DNA from: Micromonospora siamensis
Lineage (GTDB): Bacteria; Actinomycetota; Actinomycetes; Mycobacteriales; Micromonosporaceae
NCBI RefSeq assembly: GCF_900090305.1
Contig: NZ_LT607751.1
Span: 4,278,001 to 4,342,000, forward strand
DNA length: 64,000 bases
Direction: 5' to 3'
Shown: piece after piece, positions 12,239 to 19,574 of the stretch
Position numbering within the stretch: the first letter of the stretch is position 1
How the letters are laid out: each line of letters starts with the position of its first letter
Translations under genes and position numbers: made by a program
The notes under the pieces: model-generated
What the model was told of the DNA's origin: nothing
Databases searched by the model: none
Seen by the model: the letters and a program-made list of their open reading frames with translations, nothing else

Positions 12239-15064
12239 TCAGGGCGCCGGCACGGCACGGTCCAGCAGGGCGGCGACGGTGTCCGGCACGGCCGGGTGGG
12301 CGGCCAGCAGCGCGCCGACCTCGCCCGTCCCGCCGGCCGGCGCGGCGGCCCCGGTGGGCGGCCAGTCGCCGGCACAGCCGAGCAGCGCGGCCACCGCGTC
12401 ACAGGCCGCCGGATGCGCGACGAGCAGGTCGTGCACCGGGCCGACCGGCGCGGCCGGCGCGGTCACGGGTCGCGGAGTCGGCGCCTGCCACGGCGGTACC
12501 CACGCGTCCAGGGCGGGCAGGGTGCCCGGGAGACTCCGCCCCGCCTCCCGGACCAACGCCGGCACCAGGTCCCGGGCCTCATCCCGCAGCGTGGCGATCA
12601 GCGTGGGAAGCCAGGGCAGCAGCACCGCGTCCGGCAGTCGGGCGAACGCGCCGGAGAGCACCTCGACCACGAACGGCGCCAGCGTGGGCACCGGCTCCAG
12701 GGCCCGCACCAGACCGCTCAGGTACTGCGGGAAGGCGGGCACCACCAGCGGGTTGGCCAACAGGTCGGCACAGCGTGCCCGCAGCTCGGCCAGGGGCAGC
12801 AGGCCGAGCTGGTGCCGCGCGGCCCAGAGCAGCGCCACCTTCGCCGGCGCCTCCGGGTGGGACTGGGCGACGGCGAGCTCCAGCTGCGTACGGTCACAGC
12901 CCAGCGACATCGCCAGCGACTCCATGCCGAACAGGAAGCCCAGCATCGCGGCGACCTGCCGCATTCCGGTCTCCTCGTCGGCGAACACGGTGGGCAGCAG
13001 CGTGCAGTAGTGCGCGTACCCGGCGGTGACGAAGTCCTGGCACCACGGCGGCAGGGCCGGCTCGGTGGCCCGGTAGTGGGCCAGCAGCCGCCGGATCCGG
13101 CGCAGCACCTCGGGGGCGTCGTCGACGGTGCGCTCGGCCGCGAGCAGCTCCACCGCCCGCGCGCCCAGCTCGTCGGCGAGCCGCCGCCCGCCGAGCAGGG
13201 TCAGGGCGTCCTCGACGGCGGCCAGCGCGACGGCGGCGGTGGCCCGCGGGGCGCGTACGGAGCGACGCAGCCGCTGCTCCAGCACCTGCTCGACGGTGAC
13301 GCCCTCGTAGCCCAACTCGATCAGGGTCCGCTGGTGCCGGCCGAGCGCCACGTCCCAGCTCTCCTGGACCGACCGCTCCCCCAGCCGGCGCTCCCCCATG
13401 ATCGGCCGGAGCACGCCCGGGGGAAGCAGGTGGCGCAGCATCCACAGCAGGTCCGAGCCGCCGGCCAGCTCCGGTTGGGCGCGCAGGTCCAGCAGGATCC
13501 GCTGCACCCCGCGCTTCTCCACGTCGATCCCGAGCGGCCGCAGCCGGTCGACCACGTCGCGGGCCAGCGGCGGGAGAGCGTCGTAGCCGACCTGGCCGAC
13601 CCGGTCCCCGCCGAGCAGGATCTCGCAGAGCCGGCGCACGTCGCGCCGGCCGGGCACCACGTCCTTCTCGATGCAGGTCACCGCCGCGTCGGCAAAGTCG
13701 TACGGGGTGGGCCGGGCCCGGTTGCGCAGGCCGGCCAGCAGGATCGCGGTCTCGAACACGGCGATCGCGTCGGCCGTGCTGGCCAGGTAGCCGTTGCGCC
13801 GGGCCAGCCGGACGATGTCGACGCTCCAGCCGAGCAGCTCCGCCTCGTCCAGGGCGTCGAGCGCCGGTGGCGCGGACAGGAACCCGGTGAGCCGGTCCCC
13901 GGCCGGCCCGTCGCCCGCCGGCAGGGCCTTGCGGGCCCGGCCGCCCCGGCGGCGTCCGCCCCGCTGCCCGTCCAGCCGGTACGGGGTGAGCCCGGACCGC
14001 TGCACCGCCTTGCGCCAGGTCGCCCCGGCGACGGAGACCGAGCCCGCCGCCAGGCCGAACTGCGCCTCGATGGCGGAGTTGCTGGACGGGATGAGCCCGT
14101 AGAGCCAGTGGGTGCCCGTCCGGGGGGTGATCTCGTACGGCGGGGCGTCGGACCCGGTGCCGAACTGCTCGACCCGGCTGGCGGCGTGGAAGGCGCCGCA
14201 GACGTGCAGGCACTCGCCGGCCGGCACGCCGGAGGTGGCGAGGTGCTGGCGGATCCGGGTCCACATGTACCGCTCGCGTTCCTCGTCGCGGTCCAGCCGG
14301 TCGGCGTCGGCCGGGCGCAGCCGCCGGAACAGGCTGCCGATCAGCACCATCACCTGGCGGTAGGTGTCGTGGTCGGCACCGGCCAGGGGCTGTTCGACGT
14401 ACTGGTCCCACCACTCCGACCAGTGCCGGACCCGGCCGTGGTGCAGCAGGTACGCCTCCAGCTCGGCGAAGCCGGGCCGCAGGTCGCCGATCTCCACCCC
14501 GACCGCGTCCCCGTGCAGGGCGGCGTCCTCGTCGGCCGGTCGGGCGTCGGTGTCCGCGACGCCGTCGCGGTCGCGGGGCAGCCACTGGAACACGTGGTCG
14601 GTCGAGCGGTCCACCAGCACCAGCTCCACGCCGGGGGTGTCCAGCGCGTACGCGATGGCCTGGTATTCGGCGGACGCCTCGGTGATCGGCGCGACCACGC
14701 TCAGCGGCGCCCAGTCGGCGGGGTGACCGTCGACCCGGGAAGCGAACGCCTGGACGGCCACCGGCAGTGTGCAGTTACGCAGCTCGCCCAGTAGCGGCGC
14801 CAGGTCCTCGCAGAGCTCCAGGTAGATCACCTTCGGCTGCTTCTCCCGCAGCCGGCGGACCATGGCCAGCGCCGAGGCGGGCGAGTGGTGGCAGACCGGG
14901 AAGATCTCCAGCTCCTCGGCGAGCGCCCGGTCGACGTCGTCGACCATGCCGGTGAGGATGCCGTGCAGCGCGTCCGGGGTGTCGGCGAAGGCGGTGGCGG
15001 CGTCGCCCAGCTGGGCGCGCAACGCCGCGAACGGGCCGCCCGGCGGCGGCGGGGCGGCGGTCAT
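12239..15064 (-). CDS. DUF5682 family protein of MoxR-VWA operon
   Basis: 941 residues, last gene of the five-gene operon; its ATG overlaps the AAA+ stop (ATGA). The N-terminal third holds FPVCHHSPAS (55-64), VIYLELCEDL (79-88) and HVCGAFHAASR (287-297). These conserved His/Glu/GxxH positions recall the EreA/ChaN/TraB-like fold, which is my inference. The rest is mainly helical, with repeated Leu/Ala/Arg helices resembling HEAT-type repeats. No membrane segment. DUF5682 is characteristically encoded beside a MoxR ATPase, a VWA protein and a SWIM protein, as here. The biochemical role is unknown; an effector or substrate-handling part of an ATPase machine is a fair guess. Confidence 0.8.
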   Translation of the reverse strand: MTAAPPPPGGPFAALRAQLGDAATAFADTPDALHGILTGMVDDVDRALAEELEIFPVCHHSPASALAMVRRLREKQPKVIYLELCEDLAPLLGELRNCTLPVAVQAFASRVDGHPADWAPLSVVAPITEASAEYQAIAYALDTPGVELVLVDRSTDHVFQWLPRDRDGVADTDARPADEDAALHGDAVGVEIGDLRPGFAELEAYLLHHGRVRHWSEWWDQYVEQPLAGADHDTYRQVMVLIGSLFRRLRPADADRLDRDEERERYMWTRIRQHLATSGVPAGECLHVCGAFHAASRVEQFGTGSDAPPYEITPRTGTHWLYGLIPSSNSAIEAQFGLAAGSVSVAGATWRKAVQRSGLTPYRLDGQRGGRRRGGRARKALPAGDGPAGDRLTGFLSAPPALDALDEAELLGWSVDIVRLARRNGYLASTADAIAVFETAILLAGLRNRARPTPYDFADAAVTCIEKDVVPGRRDVRRLCEILLGGDRVGQVGYDALPPLARDVVDRLRPLGIDVEKRGVQRILLDLRAQPELAGGSDLLWMLRHLLPPGVLRPIMGERRLGERSVQESWDVALGRHQRTLIELGYEGVTVEQVLEQRLRRSVRAPRATAAVALAAVEDALTLLGGRRLADELGARAVELLAAERTVDDAPEVLRRIRRLLAHYRATEPALPPWCQDFVTAGYAHYCTLLPTVFADEETGMRQVAAMLGFLFGMESLAMSLGCDRTQLELAVAQSHPEAPAKVALLWAARHQLGLLPLAELRARCADLLANPLVVPAFPQYLSGLVRALEPVPTLAPFVVEVLSGAFARLPDAVLLPWLPTLIATLRDEARDLVPALVREAGRSLPGTLPALDAWVPPWQAPTPRPVTAPAAPVGPVHDLLVAHPAACDAVAALLGCAGDWPPTGAAAPAGGTGEVGALLAAHPAVPDTVAALLDRAVPAP

Positions 15065-16173
15065 GACAACGTGGCGATCGCCTCGCGACCGCCGGTCAGG
15101 AAGCCCTCCCACGGCCCGCCGTCGGCCTTGCTGCGCGGCTCCACCACGCCGTGCAGGTATTTGTTGAGGATGGCCAGGTCCTCGGGGCTGCGCCGGGCCA
15201 GCGACCCGACCAGCGAGCCGGCGAGCGTCTCGGCGCGCAGCGTGCGGTCGCCGAAGAACTGGCTGTGCAGCACGGCGTCCTCCAGCACGCCGATCTGCTC
15301 GGCGGTGGACAGGGCGGACTCCAGCTTCTCGTCGTCGCTGGTGGCCGACGCGGCGGCGGCGCGCAGGTCGGCGAAGCTCTGCAGCAGGATGTCCAGCAGG
15401 TTGGGCGGCACCTCCAGCTCGATGCGGTGCCGGCGCAGCAGCTCCTCGGTGCGGAAGCGGACGATCTCCGCCTCGCTGCGCTTGTTGGTGACCACCGGGA
15501 TGCGGACGAAGTTGAACCGCCGCTTGAGCGCCGAGGAGAGGTCGTTGACCCCGCGGTCGCGGCTGTTGGCGGTGGCGATGATCGAGAAGCCGGGCTTGGC
15601 GAAGACGATGTTGTCGTCGTCGAGCTCGGGGATGGAGACGTACTTCTCCGAGAGGATCGAGATCAGCGCGTCCTGCACGTCGCTGGTGGACCGGGTCAGC
15701 TCCTCGAACCGGCCGATCGACCCCTGCTCCATCGCGGTCATGATCGGCGAGGGGATCATCGACTCCCGGGACTGGCCACGGGCGATCACCATCGAGACGT
15801 TCCACGAGTACTTGATGTGGTCCTCGGTGGTGCCGGCGGTGCCCTGCACGACCAGGGTCGAGTTGCGGGAGATCGCGGCGGCGAGCAGCTCGGCCAGCCA
15901 GCTCTTGCCGGTGCCCGGGTCGCCGATGAGCAGCAGCCCGCGGTCGGAGGCGAGGGTGACGATGCTCCGCTCGACGAAGCTGCGGTCACCGAACCACTTC
16001 GGCGCGATCTCGCGGTCGAGCCCGTCGGCGCGCTCGGAGCCGAGGACGAACAGCCGCACCATCCGGGGGCTGAGCCGCCAGGAGAACGGCTTCGGGCCGG
16101 CGTCGACGGACTCCAGCCAGTCGAGCTCGTCGGCGTACTTCACCTCGGCGGGGGCACGCAGCATGTCGGTCAT
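15061..16173 (-). CDS. MoxR-type AAA+ ATPase
   Basis: 370 residues. Walker A GDPGTGKS at 84-91; the Walker B position reads RFEEL (155-159), so the usual Asp-Glu is Glu-Glu; sensor 1 is TANSRDRG at 201-208, and Arg residues at 218-219 may act in trans. The strand-helix order fits the MoxR clade, whose members remodel or load metal into partner proteins together with VWA partners. The start follows GGAG ten bases upstream, inside a 13-base gap after the VWA gene. It is fourth in the operon and presumably the motor of the system. Confidence 0.88.
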   Translation of the reverse strand: MTDMLRAPAEVKYADELDWLESVDAGPKPFSWRLSPRMVRLFVLGSERADGLDREIAPKWFGDRSFVERSIVTLASDRGLLLIGDPGTGKSWLAELLAAAISRNSTLVVQGTAGTTEDHIKYSWNVSMVIARGQSRESMIPSPIMTAMEQGSIGRFEELTRSTSDVQDALISILSEKYVSIPELDDDNIVFAKPGFSIIATANSRDRGVNDLSSALKRRFNFVRIPVVTNKRSEAEIVRFRTEELLRRHRIELEVPPNLLDILLQSFADLRAAAASATSDDEKLESALSTAEQIGVLEDAVLHSQFFGDRTLRAETLAGSLVGSLARRSPEDLAILNKYLHGVVEPRSKADGGPWEGFLTGGREAIATLS

Positions 16174-16186
16174 CTTCAGGGGTCTC

Positions 16187-17665
16187 CTAGGTGAGGAAGT
16201 TCTTGAGTTCGAAGACGAGCTTGCGGATGTGACCCGAGAGCACCGGGGTGCCCAGGTCCTTGAACCGCTGCCGGAACCAGGGGTTGACGCTCTGCTGCCC
16301 CGAGCTGTTCACCGAGCCGACGGGGATGAAGCGCACCCCGGAGCGGTGCACCGCCTGGATCCCGTCGAACAGCGGCTGCGAGCGGTCGAACTCGTAGAAG
16401 TCCGAGATCCAGACCAGGACGGTCTGCGCGGGCTCGACGATCTTCGGACGGGCCATCGCCATCGCCACCGGCCCGTCGTTGCCGCCGCCCAGGTTGGTGC
16501 GGAGCAGCACCTCGAACGGGTCGTGCACCCACGGGGTGAGGTCGACCGCCCGGGTGTCGTACGCGATGAGGTGGACGTCCACCTTGGGCAGTCCGGCGAA
16601 GATCGACGCCAGGATGGTGCAGTTGACCATCGAGTCCACCATCGACCCGGACTGGTCGACCACCACGATCAGGCGGGCCGGGGTGGTACGCCGGGCGGTC
16701 TGCCGGTAGTAGAGCCGGTCGACGTAGAGCCGCTGGTCCTCGGGGCTCCAGTTGGTGAGGTTCTTCCAGATGGTGCGGTCCAGGTCGAGGTTGCGGAACA
16801 CCCGCTTCGGCGGCACCGACCGGTCGATCGCGCCGACGCTGGCCTGCTCCACCTGGGTCCGCAGCACCTCCGCGACCTGGTCGACGAACCGGCGGATCAG
16901 CGCCTTGGCGTTGGCCAGCGCCACCCCGGACAGGTGCGACTTGTCCCGCAGCAGCTGCTCGATCAGCGACATGCTGGGGGTGAGCCGGGCGGCCAGCGCC
17001 GGATCGGCGAGCACCTCGCGCAACCGCATCCGGCGGACCAGGTCACCCTCCAGGCCGGTCAGGGTCGGTCCCAGGCCGTCGGAGCGCCCCCGCAGCTGCC
17101 CCGGCTCGGCGCCGAGCGCCCGCTCCAGCCAGCCCGCGTCGGACTGCCAGCGGGCCAGCTGACCGGCGGTCACCTCACCCGACCCGGTGCCGAAGACGTT
17201 GAGCAGCAGCTTGGACACCAGCGCGGCCCGCCGCACCTCCGCCTCCCCACCCCCGCCACCGACAACGGTGGGAGTCCCGTCGGCGGCAACAGCGGGGGCC
17301 CCATCGCCGGCAACCGCGGGAGCCCCGTCGGCGGCAACGGCGGGGGCCTCGTCGGCGGCGTCGGGCGGGGTGAGCAGGCCGCGCAGCTCGCCGGCGAGCG
17401 CCGGGAAGCGTTGCACGACGGTGTCCACGGAGACCGCCGGGTCGAGCAGCGCGGTGGGCAGGCCGAGGTCGTCGAGGACGGCGACGCTGGCCGACTCCAG
17501 GGTGGGCTGCTCGTCGGGGTCGAAGAGGCGGGCCAGCAGCCGCCAGTAGAGCACCTGGCGGCGGTTCTCGGCGGCGCGCGCCGCCGCTTCGGCGGTGTCG
17601 GCGGGGCCGGGGCCGACGAGGGCCGGCGCGGTGGCGTCGGCGCGGGCCGGGTCGAGGTCGGTCAT
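16187..17665 (-). CDS. VWA-domain protein partner of MoxR ATPase
   Basis: 492 residues. The C-terminal von Willebrand A domain starts near 330 with a complete MIDAS beginning, VVVDQSGSM (Asp337, Ser339, Ser341), and continues with IAYDTRAVDL and a WISDFYEF strand, so metal binding should be intact. The N-terminal 300 residues are helical, and residues about 105-135 form a low-complexity repeat of Gly-Ala-Pro-Ala-Val-Ala units encoded by 24-bp DNA repeats. Its ATG overlaps the upstream stop (ATGA). MoxR-VWA pairs act together in protein maturation, so this is likely the substrate adaptor. Confidence 0.88.
   Translation of the reverse strand: MTDLDPARADATAPALVGPGPADTAEAAARAAENRRQVLYWRLLARLFDPDEQPTLESASVAVLDDLGLPTALLDPAVSVDTVVQRFPALAGELRGLLTPPDAADEAPAVAADGAPAVAGDGAPAVAADGTPTVVGGGGGEAEVRRAALVSKLLLNVFGTGSGEVTAGQLARWQSDAGWLERALGAEPGQLRGRSDGLGPTLTGLEGDLVRRMRLREVLADPALAARLTPSMSLIEQLLRDKSHLSGVALANAKALIRRFVDQVAEVLRTQVEQASVGAIDRSVPPKRVFRNLDLDRTIWKNLTNWSPEDQRLYVDRLYYRQTARRTTPARLIVVVDQSGSMVDSMVNCTILASIFAGLPKVDVHLIAYDTRAVDLTPWVHDPFEVLLRTNLGGGNDGPVAMAMARPKIVEPAQTVLVWISDFYEFDRSQPLFDGIQAVHRSGVRFIPVGSVNSSGQQSVNPWFRQRFKDLGTPVLSGHIRKLVFELKNFLT
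17270..17360. repeat. 24-bp tandem repeats inside the VWA gene
   Basis: Units begin at 17270, 17294, 17318 and (partial) 17342, each a variant of GGGAGTCCCGTCGGCGGCAA plus four bases. They encode on the minus strand a run of about four GAPAVA(A/G)D octapeptides. The period keeps the frame, so copy number could vary without breaking the protein. Confidence 0.85.
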
Positions 17666-19071
17666 CGGCGCAGCAGCCTTCCCGCGCGTTCGCGCAGCAC
17701 CTCGACGGCGTCACCGGCCTTCGCCTCGGCCTTGGCGACCTTCGGGTCGGTCACGCCCAACGCCCAGTCGCCGTTGTGCGCCTCGACCGGTTTGCGCTTG
17801 ACGGTGGCCTGCACGGCGAGCGGCTGCACCGACCAGCGGCCGGCGTCCCAGCGCAGCAGGCCGACACAGGCCGACGAGGCCACCACCAGCTCGGGGGTGA
17901 GCGGGCCGCACCCGGGCAGCCGGTCCACGGCGACGTCCAGCGGCTGGCCGTCGAGGGTCAGCGTCGTCCCACCGGTCGGCGTGGTGCTGACGGCGTACCC
18001 CTCCAGCAGCACCGGTTCGGCGATGGCGGCGGGGTGGCGGTCCAGCGGCGGCACGGGCGCGGCCCGGGCGCCGGCCAGCAGCACCCGGGCGGTGGCGAAC
18101 GGGTCGGCGGGCTCGTCGAGGGTGGCCCGGTCGTCGCGCCAGATCAGGTCGCCGCCTCGGGCGGGCAGGCCGGTGACCCGCAGCGCCCGGTGCTGCGCCA
18201 GCGCGGTCAGCAGCACGGGGTGGGCGTCCAGCAGCCGCCACAGCGCCGGGCCGACGATGGTGTCCGTCCGGGCGGCGCCGACGGTGGCCCGGACCAGCCG
18301 GGTCGGGCCGCCGCCGTCCGGTTCGAGCACGGCGTGCACCTGGACCTGCACGGCGGTGCCGTGCTCGTGCACGTCGACGCCGAGCGGCAGCAGCCGGCCG
18401 TCGACCGCGTCGACCGGCGGCGGCGTGGCCGGTGCCGCCTCCTGGGCGAGCAGCAGCGCCCGGCTCCACAGGTCGGCCCAGCGGCGGGCGGGCAGCCGGG
18501 ACGTCACGGCCACCGGGCAGGACGCGCGCAGTTCGGCGGCCAGCCCGTCGAGGAGCACCGCCAGCCGGCGCAGCGCGGGCACCGCGAGCGCGGCCTCGAC
18601 GGGCCGGTCGGCTGCGGCGACCAGGTCCTGGTCGACGCCCCGCCAGCCGGTGACCGCCAGCTCGTGCAGCCAGGCCCGGCAGCCGGCCCGCAGGTTCGCG
18701 GTGTCCTGGTCCGGAGCATCGGCCACCGGCCCGGTCCAGGGTGACCGGTCCCGGCCGAGCACCCCGTCCACCCGGGCGAGCAACGCGTCGTGCACCGCGC
18801 CGAACAGCGCGGTCCGGGCGCCGGCCAGGGCGGCCAGGTGCTCGTCGGCGACCGACCCGACCGAGAGTTTCTCGACCGCCTCGGTGACCCGGCCGCCGAG
18901 CGGGGTGGCGGTGAGCGCGCCGGCGAGGCCGGTCAGGGCTGCGAGCTGGGGTTCCCCCAGTCGGGCCAGGCCGTGGGCGAGCACGCCGTCGACGCCCTCG
19001 ACCGCCTCCAGCGCGTCGGTCACCCCCGGTGGTGGTTCGTCGTGCAGCCCGGCGAGGTGGATACCCCGCAT
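17662..19071 (-). CDS. Unknown protein of SWIM-VWA-MoxR operon
   Basis: 469 residues, no recognised domain. The N-terminal half is Ala/Leu-rich and helical (for example residues 60-125 and 150-190). The C-terminal half looks beta-rich, with a conserved-looking GDLIWRDDRATLDEPAD block near 315 and a VVASSACVGLLRWDAGRWSVQPL block near 405. The position corresponds to the place often taken by a DUF5691-type protein in related operons, but I cannot confirm the match. The ATG overlaps the SWIM stop by one base, and its own stop overlaps the VWA start, so it is coupled on both sides. Probably a structural partner of the complex. Confidence 0.7.
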   Translation of the reverse strand: MRGIHLAGLHDEPPPGVTDALEAVEGVDGVLAHGLARLGEPQLAALTGLAGALTATPLGGRVTEAVEKLSVGSVADEHLAALAGARTALFGAVHDALLARVDGVLGRDRSPWTGPVADAPDQDTANLRAGCRAWLHELAVTGWRGVDQDLVAAADRPVEAALAVPALRRLAVLLDGLAAELRASCPVAVTSRLPARRWADLWSRALLLAQEAAPATPPPVDAVDGRLLPLGVDVHEHGTAVQVQVHAVLEPDGGGPTRLVRATVGAARTDTIVGPALWRLLDAHPVLLTALAQHRALRVTGLPARGGDLIWRDDRATLDEPADPFATARVLLAGARAAPVPPLDRHPAAIAEPVLLEGYAVSTTPTGGTTLTLDGQPLDVAVDRLPGCGPLTPELVVASSACVGLLRWDAGRWSVQPLAVQATVKRKPVEAHNGDWALGVTDPKVAKAEAKAGDAVEVLRERAGRLLRR

Positions 19072-19574
19072 CAGTGCCCCCTTCCGGAGCTCGGGAACCA
19101 GTGCAGCTCGGGAACCGGCTCGGTGCTCGCCGGCAGTTCCAGGTAGGACAGGTGACGCAGGAAGCGGGCGAAGACCACGGCGGCGGGGCTGGGCTCGTGC
19201 CGGCCGTCCAGCCGGGTGAGCAGGTCGGCGCCGGTGCTCGCCCCGTCACCGGGGTCGATCCGCAGGTAGCGGGCGACCCGGTCGACGCCGTACTGGAGGA
19301 CCGCCTCGTCGAGCAGGGCGTGCAGGTGCTTGCAGGGGGTGCCGCGCAGCCCACCGCAGGGCCGGTTGTTGTTGGTGCTGCAGTGGTAGGCGTGGCTGCC
19401 GGCGGCGATCGACGAGACGTAGACCCGTTCGACGTCCGAGCCGCTGGACACCACGCCCTGGAGCCGCCCGTCGGCCAGCTCGACGAAGGGGACCTTGGCC
19501 AGTTTCCGGGCCCGCACCGGCGGCACCACGCGTACGGTGCTGCGGCGCTCCCACGCGGTGTCCTCCGCGTCCAT
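19071..19574 (-). CDS. SWIM zinc-finger protein
   Basis: 167 residues from the ATG at 19574 (a GTG lies one codon earlier). First gene of the five-gene operon. The zinc site is Cys65, Cys73, Cys81 and His83 in YHCSTNNNRPCGG and PCKHLHALL; the end matches the SWIM CxH motif, while the first two Cys are seven residues apart instead of one. SWIM domains bind DNA or protein. With three coupled downstream genes it may give the system its target recognition. The divergent amine oxidase gene begins 106 bases away. Confidence 0.85.
   Translation of the reverse strand: MDAEDTAWERRSTVRVVPPVRARKLAKVPFVELADGRLQGVVSSGSDVERVYVSSIAAGSHAYHCSTNNNRPCGGLRGTPCKHLHALLDEAVLQYGVDRVARYLRIDPGDGASTGADLLTRLDGRHEPSPAAVVFARFLRHLSYLELPASTEPVPELHWFPSSGRGH

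What the first reader, a model, noticed from the sequence alone, without database searches (positions are those of the whole stretch)
12239..19574. Five-gene SWIM-unknown-VWA-MoxR-DUF5682 operon as a self-contained ATPase machine
Seen: five leftward genes; four of the junctions overlap or nearly touch (1-4 base overlaps, one 13-base gap), so the proteins should be made in fixed ratio. Known: MoxR ATPases work with VWA partners; SWIM domains bind nucleic acid or protein. Inference: SWIM may recognise the target, VWA bridge it, AAA+ supply force, DUF5682 act as effector. MoxR-VWA systems have been proposed as conflict or quality-control devices, but this exact set has no established activity.
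Basis: partly seen in the sequence, partly recalled or inferred. Interest (0 to 1): 0.85.

Follow-up and report, generated by a model that had tools for sequence, protein, structure and literature searches.

The report
Split, rearranged cousin of yehLMPQ operon
A five-gene bacterial operon of unknown function turns out to be a rearranged cousin of an unstudied four-gene operon in laboratory E. coli, and looks like an ATP-driven machine that may switch on a TraB/Tiki-like enzyme under the control of a possible nucleic-acid-binding subunit.

Summary
In detail: five leftward genes at 12239-19574, junctions 1-base overlap, 4-base overlap, 13-base gap, 4-base overlap. The set recurs, but it is four functions, not five: the "unknown" gene matches the C-terminal half of YehQ, and the SWIM gene its N-terminal half. 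The operon is a reordered form (type B: SWIM, C-half, VWA, MoxR, DUF5682) of E. coli K-12 yehL-yehM-yehP-yehQ (type A: MoxR, DUF5682, VWA, SWIM). Type A was seen in six phyla, type B in four. My searches found no paper on its function. New leads: the DUF5682 N-domain carries TraB/Tiki-like motifs and, pooled over both types, matches a TraB profile above shuffled controls; type B alone does not. The "unknown" protein models with a tandem OB-like half, weak scores. DUF5682 and VWA share one open frame in 16 of 70 loci. Best model: MoxR-VWA remodels or activates DUF5682, with the SWIM/OB protein as recognition subunit. E. coli yehLMPQ is near-core, type B patchy, and no PADLOC model fits the set, so defence stays a rival.

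The parts
19071..19574 (-). gene 1: SWIM-type zinc-finger protein, N-terminal half of a YehQ-like protein
   Evidence: ORF; profile match to the first SWIM of YehQ, score 31.0 against best of 40 shuffles 21.9
19326..19382 (-). variant finger C-x7-C-x7-C-x-H (CSTNNNRPCGGLRGTPCKH)
   Evidence: coordinates; pattern in 23 of 24 type B SWIM sequences
17662..19071 (-). gene 2 ('unknown'): C-terminal half of a YehQ-like protein
   Evidence: one open frame with SWIM in L078 and L079, in none of 15 named loci; profile match to YehQ over 275 columns
17797..18423 (-). predicted tandem OB-like region of gene 2 (residues 217-425)
16187..17665 (-). gene 3: VWA (CoxE/YehP-like) protein; VWA_CoxE match at 16241-16864
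   Evidence: PF05762 E 1.5e-30; 33% over 257 aa to YehP, E 9e-46; D-x-S-x-S invariant in 71 of 71 aligned sequences
15061..16173 (-). gene 4: MoxR AAA+ ATPase, YehL-like; AAA_5 match at 15514-15939
   Evidence: PF07728 E 1.7e-36; 41% over 356 aa to YehL, E 6e-86
12239..15064 (-). gene 5: DUF5682 protein, YehM-like
   Evidence: PF18934 106.7 bits; 23% over 249 aa to YehM, E 4e-6; AF2 model pLDDT 84.7, pTM 0.77
14030..14908 (-). proposed TraB/Tiki-like N-domain of DUF5682 (residues 53-345)
   Evidence: H59 H60 S61 P62, E83, R263, M267, G290, H293 invariant in 32 chosen sequences; TraB profile match above shuffles for the pooled family, not for type B alone
12485..13447 (-). alpha-solenoid-like part of DUF5682 (about residues 540-860)

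Best explanation
The operon encodes one machine, a type B member of the YehLMPQ group. Steps 1-4 are the proposal. (1) MoxR forms an ATP-driven ring working through its VWA partner, as in other MoxR-VWA pairs. (2) The VWA protein docks on DUF5682. (3) DUF5682 is the dedicated client and effector: a TraB/Tiki-like, possibly metal-dependent hydrolase domain on an alpha-solenoid; MoxR-VWA remodels it, for example to load its metal or release an inactive state. (4) The SWIM half plus the C-terminal half (tandem OB-like) make one recognition subunit that probably binds nucleic acid and decides when the machine acts. Shown by sequence: the gene set, its recurrence, homology to YehL, YehP and YehM, the split-YehQ relation (profile level), shared DUF5682-VWA open frames, conserved motifs. 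Inferred: complex formation, metal, hydrolysis, nucleic-acid binding, direction of control.
For: Homology to E. coli YehL, YehP, YehM; YehM is PF18934 at 330.8 bits. DUF5682 in 60 of 61 and VWA in 59 of 61 flank-complete loci. DUF5682 and VWA in one open frame in 16 of 70 loci holding both; L013 encodes one 1223-aa frame with both Pfam domains. SWIM and gene 2 in one frame in L078 and L079; gene 2 versus YehQ profile score 43.5 against best of 40 shuffles 16.6. TraB: pooled 79-sequence N-domain profile scores 34.7 against best of 40 shuffles 17.9 and reversed 15.4; ChaN (3 of 32) and TraB (2 of 32) are the only extra Pfam families hit by more than one member, best E 0.039 and 0.13, and are absent from control alignment A3. 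OB. NorQ remodels a linker in the VWA protein NorD to allow metal insertion (PMC13036017, abstract seen).
Confidence: 0.42

Rival explanations
1. A conflict or defence device: the SWIM/OB protein senses foreign or damaged nucleic acid and MoxR-VWA then unleashes DUF5682 on the invader or the cell.
For: Type B is patchy in the genus, 47 of 121 genomes, and sits in different contexts. Several genomes hold both a type B cassette and another DUF5682 copy (G008 and G012; G232; G006 and G011). A type A copy on an Iodobacter plasmid lies beside type I restriction genes. MoxR-vWA ternary systems are proposed conflict systems (PMC7159879, passages); a P. aeruginosa MoxR+VWF cluster, Arc2, gives some protection against a rival's toxin (PMC8926400, passages; homology untested).
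Against: No PADLOC model fits the set; the best hits are weak, mad8 E 1.1e-5 on MoxR and TerY E 3.5e-4 on VWA. E. coli yehLMPQ is covered at least 80% in 5162 of 5426 genomes, unlike typical defence genes. One neighbouring restriction locus is an anecdote.
Confidence: 0.25
2. A housekeeping maturation or quality-control chaperone: MoxR-VWA acts on some other cellular complex, DUF5682 is a non-enzymatic scaffold or adaptor, and the SWIM/OB protein binds a nucleic-acid cofactor or ribonucleoprotein client.
For: Near-core in E. coli; the studied MoxR-VWA pairs listed in PMC7159879 mature dedicated complexes (passages); the C-terminal part of DUF5682 looks like a scaffold.
Against: No nitric oxide reductase or CO dehydrogenase gene among the ten flanking ORFs scanned; the conserved histidine and acidic motifs of DUF5682 look catalytic rather than structural (inference).
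Confidence: 0.28
3. The genes are merely neighbours and act separately.
For: Exceptions exist: L098 lacks VWA near MoxR and L125 lacks both DUF5682 and VWA; L129 and L141 next to the type B clade have order MoxR-DUF5682-VWA.
Against: 60 of 61 and 59 of 61 co-occurrence; DUF5682-VWA in one frame in 16 of 70; two gene orders keeping the same set.
Confidence: 0.05

Closest known systems
E. coli K-12 yehL-yehM-yehP-yehQ (NC_000913.3)
   Same: Same families: MoxR, DUF5682, VWA, SWIM protein; homology shown for all, by profile for the YehQ part.
   Different: Gene order; YehQ is one gene; a DUF4132 neighbour is absent in type B (0 of 14); canonical CxC..CxH in 48 of 48 YehQ-type sequences against C-x7-C-x7-CxH here. 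I found no paper giving its function.
NorQ-NorD and CoxD-CoxE (MoxR-VWA metal-insertion chaperones)
   Same: MoxR plus VWA_CoxE pair; proposed remodelling of a client through the VWA partner.
   Different: No nitric oxide reductase or CO dehydrogenase gene among the ten flanking ORFs scanned; DUF5682 and the SWIM/OB subunit are extra.
MoxR-vWA ternary conflict systems (PMC7159879)
   Same: MoxR-vWA couple with dedicated extra proteins.
   Different: The bpMoxR model scored 12.4 bits, below its 27-bit cut-off; VMAP and iSTAND partners were not searched with their own models. The held main text has 0 occurrences of SWIM, YehL and DUF5682.
TraB/Tiki superfamily (YbaP/GumN)
   Same: Order of motifs (TraB motifs recalled); pooled-profile match.
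   Different: HHSP in place of the recalled GxxH, and a long alpha-solenoid; not shown for type B alone.
RPA70 / HIN-200 / SSB OB folds
   Same: Predicted C-terminal half of gene 2 aligns over about 146-159 residues to HIN-200 and RPA70.

Membership tests
YehLMPQ-type system | MoxR of the YehL group | tested here: met
   41% over 356 aa, E 6e-86
YehLMPQ-type system | VWA_CoxE protein related to YehP | tested here: met
   33% over 257 aa, E 9e-46; PF05762
YehLMPQ-type system | DUF5682 protein related to YehM | tested here: met
   E 4e-6; PF18934 106.7 bits
YehLMPQ-type system | SWIM protein related to YehQ | tested here: met
   profile level, split in two genes: scores 31.0 and 43.5 against best shuffles 21.9 and 16.6
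YehLMPQ-type system | gene order MoxR-DUF5682-VWA-SWIM (type A) | tested here: not met
   order is SWIM-gene 2-VWA-MoxR-DUF5682; hence filed as a separate branch, type B
YehLMPQ-type system | DUF4132 neighbour | tested here: not met
   0 of 14 type B, 31 of 45 type A; not treated as defining, since 14 of 45 type A loci lack it
MoxR-vWA ternary conflict systems | third component VMAP, iSTAND, beta-propeller or FtsH | tested here: inconclusive
   no such Pfam hit over cut-off in the proteins scanned; the paper's own profiles were not run
Known anti-phage systems (PADLOC) | match to a system model | tested here: not met
   only weak AAA and VWA matches, best mad8 E 1.1e-5
TraB/Tiki superfamily | profile match of the N-domain | tested here: inconclusive
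   pooled 34.7 against 17.9, type A 33.5 against 18.2, type B alone 19.0 against 18.5
TraB/Tiki superfamily | fold of the N-domain | tested here: inconclusive
   predicted beta-alpha order is compatible by recall; the domain was not searched alone
TraB/Tiki superfamily | metal-dependent hydrolysis | not testable with these tools
   none
SWIM zinc finger | CxCx(n)CxH and Pfam PF04434 | tested here: not met
   no PF04434 hit at E <= 0.1; variant C-x7-C-x7-CxH

The most novel reading that the evidence does not exclude
A nucleic-acid-gated, ATPase-driven enzyme switch found across bacteria, E. coli K-12 included: a SWIM plus tandem-OB (RPA/HIN-like) sensor licenses a MoxR-VWA motor to activate a TraB/Tiki-like metallohydrolase (DUF5682). 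This would be a new kind of MoxR-VWA machine, with nucleic acid as input and hydrolysis as output.
Probability: 0.22. Interest if true: 0.87.

Novelty: new variant of a known kind. Interest (0 to 1): 0.62.

Why it matters
It turns an orphan actinobacterial operon, and an apparently unstudied near-core E. coli operon, into one testable system. If right, DUF5682 would stop being a domain of unknown function, the 'unknown' gene would gain a fold and a partner, and the MoxR-VWA paradigm of cofactor loading would extend to a machine with a possible nucleic-acid sensor. Because E. coli K-12 carries a type A copy, the tests can be run in a standard laboratory strain.

Tried and rejected
Defence island as an explanation: PADLOC gave only weak AAA/VWA matches. 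No count of defence genes in the flanks was made, for want of a control, so the restriction genes on one Iodobacter plasmid stay an anecdote.

A clean empty-site comparison failed: among the genomes searched, the amine-oxidase and FtsX-type genes that flank the window's cassette were found elsewhere or not at the cut-off used. L178-L180 were fetched for this but not analysed.

One search shows that five Streptomyces loci read HHAP and P0171 reads HHSS; both histidines stay.

Arc2 of P. aeruginosa (PA4317-23) as a relative: only passages read; sequences not compared.
Full report
What is there. Five minus-strand genes at 12239-19574 are confirmed base by base. Gene 4 is a MoxR AAA+ ATPase, gene 3 a VWA_CoxE protein, gene 5 a DUF5682 protein (hmmscan of the same protein lists nothing). 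Gene 1 carries a variant zinc finger and gene 2 has no Pfam match. Ten flanking ORFs were scanned: ABC/FtsX transport genes and a sigma-70-like gene on one side; an amine oxidase, a GH25 hydrolase, an amidase and a cation ATPase on the other; two gave no match. The genome is probably a Micromonospora (inference: close homologues).

What it is. E. coli K-12 has yehL-yehM-yehP-yehQ. The window MoxR is 41% identical to YehL (E 6e-86), the VWA protein 33% to YehP (E 9e-46), DUF5682 23% to YehM (E 4e-6); these are pairwise E-values. YehM is PF18934. The SWIM gene and the 'unknown' gene together match YehQ: they share one open frame in L078 and L079, and their profiles score 31.0 and 43.5 against YehQ, above 40 column shuffles each (best 21.9 and 16.6). 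Against this, none of 15 named type B loci has the two in one frame and smaller profiles had failed.

Distribution. Of 61 with more than 5.5 kb before and 7.5 kb after the MoxR start, 60 hold DUF5682 and 59 VWA; 45 are type A, 14 type B, 2 neither; the other 19 loci were left out for short flanks. Type A: Spirochaetota, Verrucomicrobiota, Pseudomonadota, Bacillota, Bacteroidota, Actinomycetota. Type B: Actinomycetota, Nostoc carneum, Herpetosiphon aurantiacus, and a Myxococcales MAG whose contig begins in gene 2, so its SWIM gene is not seen. In the quick MoxR tree of 81 rows the 17 type B rows lie on one side of a branch with SH-aLRT 100 (careful search unfinished, root unknown, a long-branch warning for L141). 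In the phylum sample PF18934 is in 39 of 396 genomes and the gene 2 family in 9 of 396. These are lower bounds, since only a few candidates per genome were scored; for example G345 has gene 2 but no PF18934 match there. In the genus gene 2 is in 47 of 121 genomes. Nine of 9 loci compared in the genus (window included) hold all five genes; flank sharing was found for L015-L016 and L183-L184 (about 9 kb each), window-L184 (about 1.5 kb), L185 with L015 and L016 (about 0.5 kb each) and L181-L182 (about 0.16 kb). Type B DUF5682 occurs on 5 of 72,556 plasmid records, one of them 11.8 Mb long. E. coli: yehLMPQ covered at least 80% in 5162 of 5426 genomes.

How it may work. VWA and DUF5682 lie in one open frame in 16 of 70 loci that hold both, and L013 has one 1223-aa frame with both domains. 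This is the best hint that VWA docks on DUF5682. The VWA D-x-S-x-S residues are invariant in 71 of 71. NorQ-NorD shows how a MoxR ring can remodel its VWA partner to allow metal insertion into a target (PMC13036017, abstract in the outline). Across 32 DUF5682 proteins chosen from both types H59 H60 S61 P62, E83, W219, E224, R263, M267, G290 and H293 are invariant. In wider sets HHSP, the E motif, RExxM and GGxH were found by pattern in 72, 62, 71 and 72 of 76 neighbourhood sequences and in 118 of 119 type B homologues for each. Five Streptomyces loci read HHAP and P0171 reads HHSS, so both histidines stay while the serine and proline vary. The pattern recalls TraB/Tiki proteins (motifs recalled); Tiki proteins are described as metalloproteases (PMC12329661, passages). 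Profile tests: pooled score 34.7 against 17.9 for the best of 40 shuffles (the 79 sequences were chosen by an exact HHSP), type A alone 33.5 against 18.2, type B alone 19.0 against 18.5, that is, not shown for the window's own branch. The significant local alignment covers the RExxM-GGxH stretch; the HHSP and E part aligns only under a permissive setting. Six other operon families scored P 0.13 or worse.

Rivals and limits. Defence is possible (patchy cassette in varying contexts; Arc2 and MoxR-vWA conflict systems as analogies, passages only), but no PADLOC model fits the set and the E. coli copy is near-core. Literature: 'DUF5682' in no paper; at least two of yehL/M/P/Q in two papers, both genome descriptions by title and abstract start; the single term yehL gave 969 papers by word start, many of them other words or names, and only the 40 listed were looked at. 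No listed paper held the SWIM term (30 of 38 and 15 of 131 papers listed). Snider and Houry 2006 was seen only as a reference. The library lacks most subscription papers, so 'no paper' means not found there.

Noticed in passing
L176 (NZ_CP103756.1 104495-130771): An E. coli conjugative plasmid carries a chromosomal segment with yehI, the yehLMPQ genes and neighbours between IS26 copies, beside resistance genes; looks like hitchhiking.
   Followed up: no
L177 (NZ_CP025783.1 17234-37588): Iodobacter plasmid with two DUF4132 genes, MoxR, DUF5682, VWA, a 347-aa SWIM gene and a 354-aa hypothetical gene (perhaps another split YehQ), next to type I restriction genes.
   Followed up: partly
L011, L013, L063, L064: Other actinobacterial DUF5682 systems with DUF5682 and VWA in one open frame; G008 and G012 hold such a copy elsewhere as well as the type B cassette.
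   Followed up: partly
L175 (MT835988.1, match 283-1347): Unannotated 'Bacteriophage sp.' scaffold from human faeces encodes a YehL-like MoxR (43% to the window's), possibly bacterial DNA.
   Followed up: no
window 12239-15064: hmmscan misses PF18934 in this type B protein although genome search scores it 106.7 bits; Pfam-based surveys may under-count type B.
   Followed up: partly
L013:17506-18588, L065-L068, L002:12280-15912: DUF4132 (YehI-like) genes sit beside type A systems (31 of 45 flank-complete loci) and in none of 14 type B loci; their role is unexplained.
   Followed up: partly
L129, L141: Pseudomarimonas and Thermoflexus MoxR branch next to type B but with order MoxR-DUF5682-VWA; L129 also has a type B-like SWIM upstream (E 6e-8), so they may be intermediates.
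   Followed up: partly
L106, L108, L111, L117, L119: A Streptomyces group of DUF5682 proteins reads HHAP where other relatives read HHSP.
   Followed up: partly
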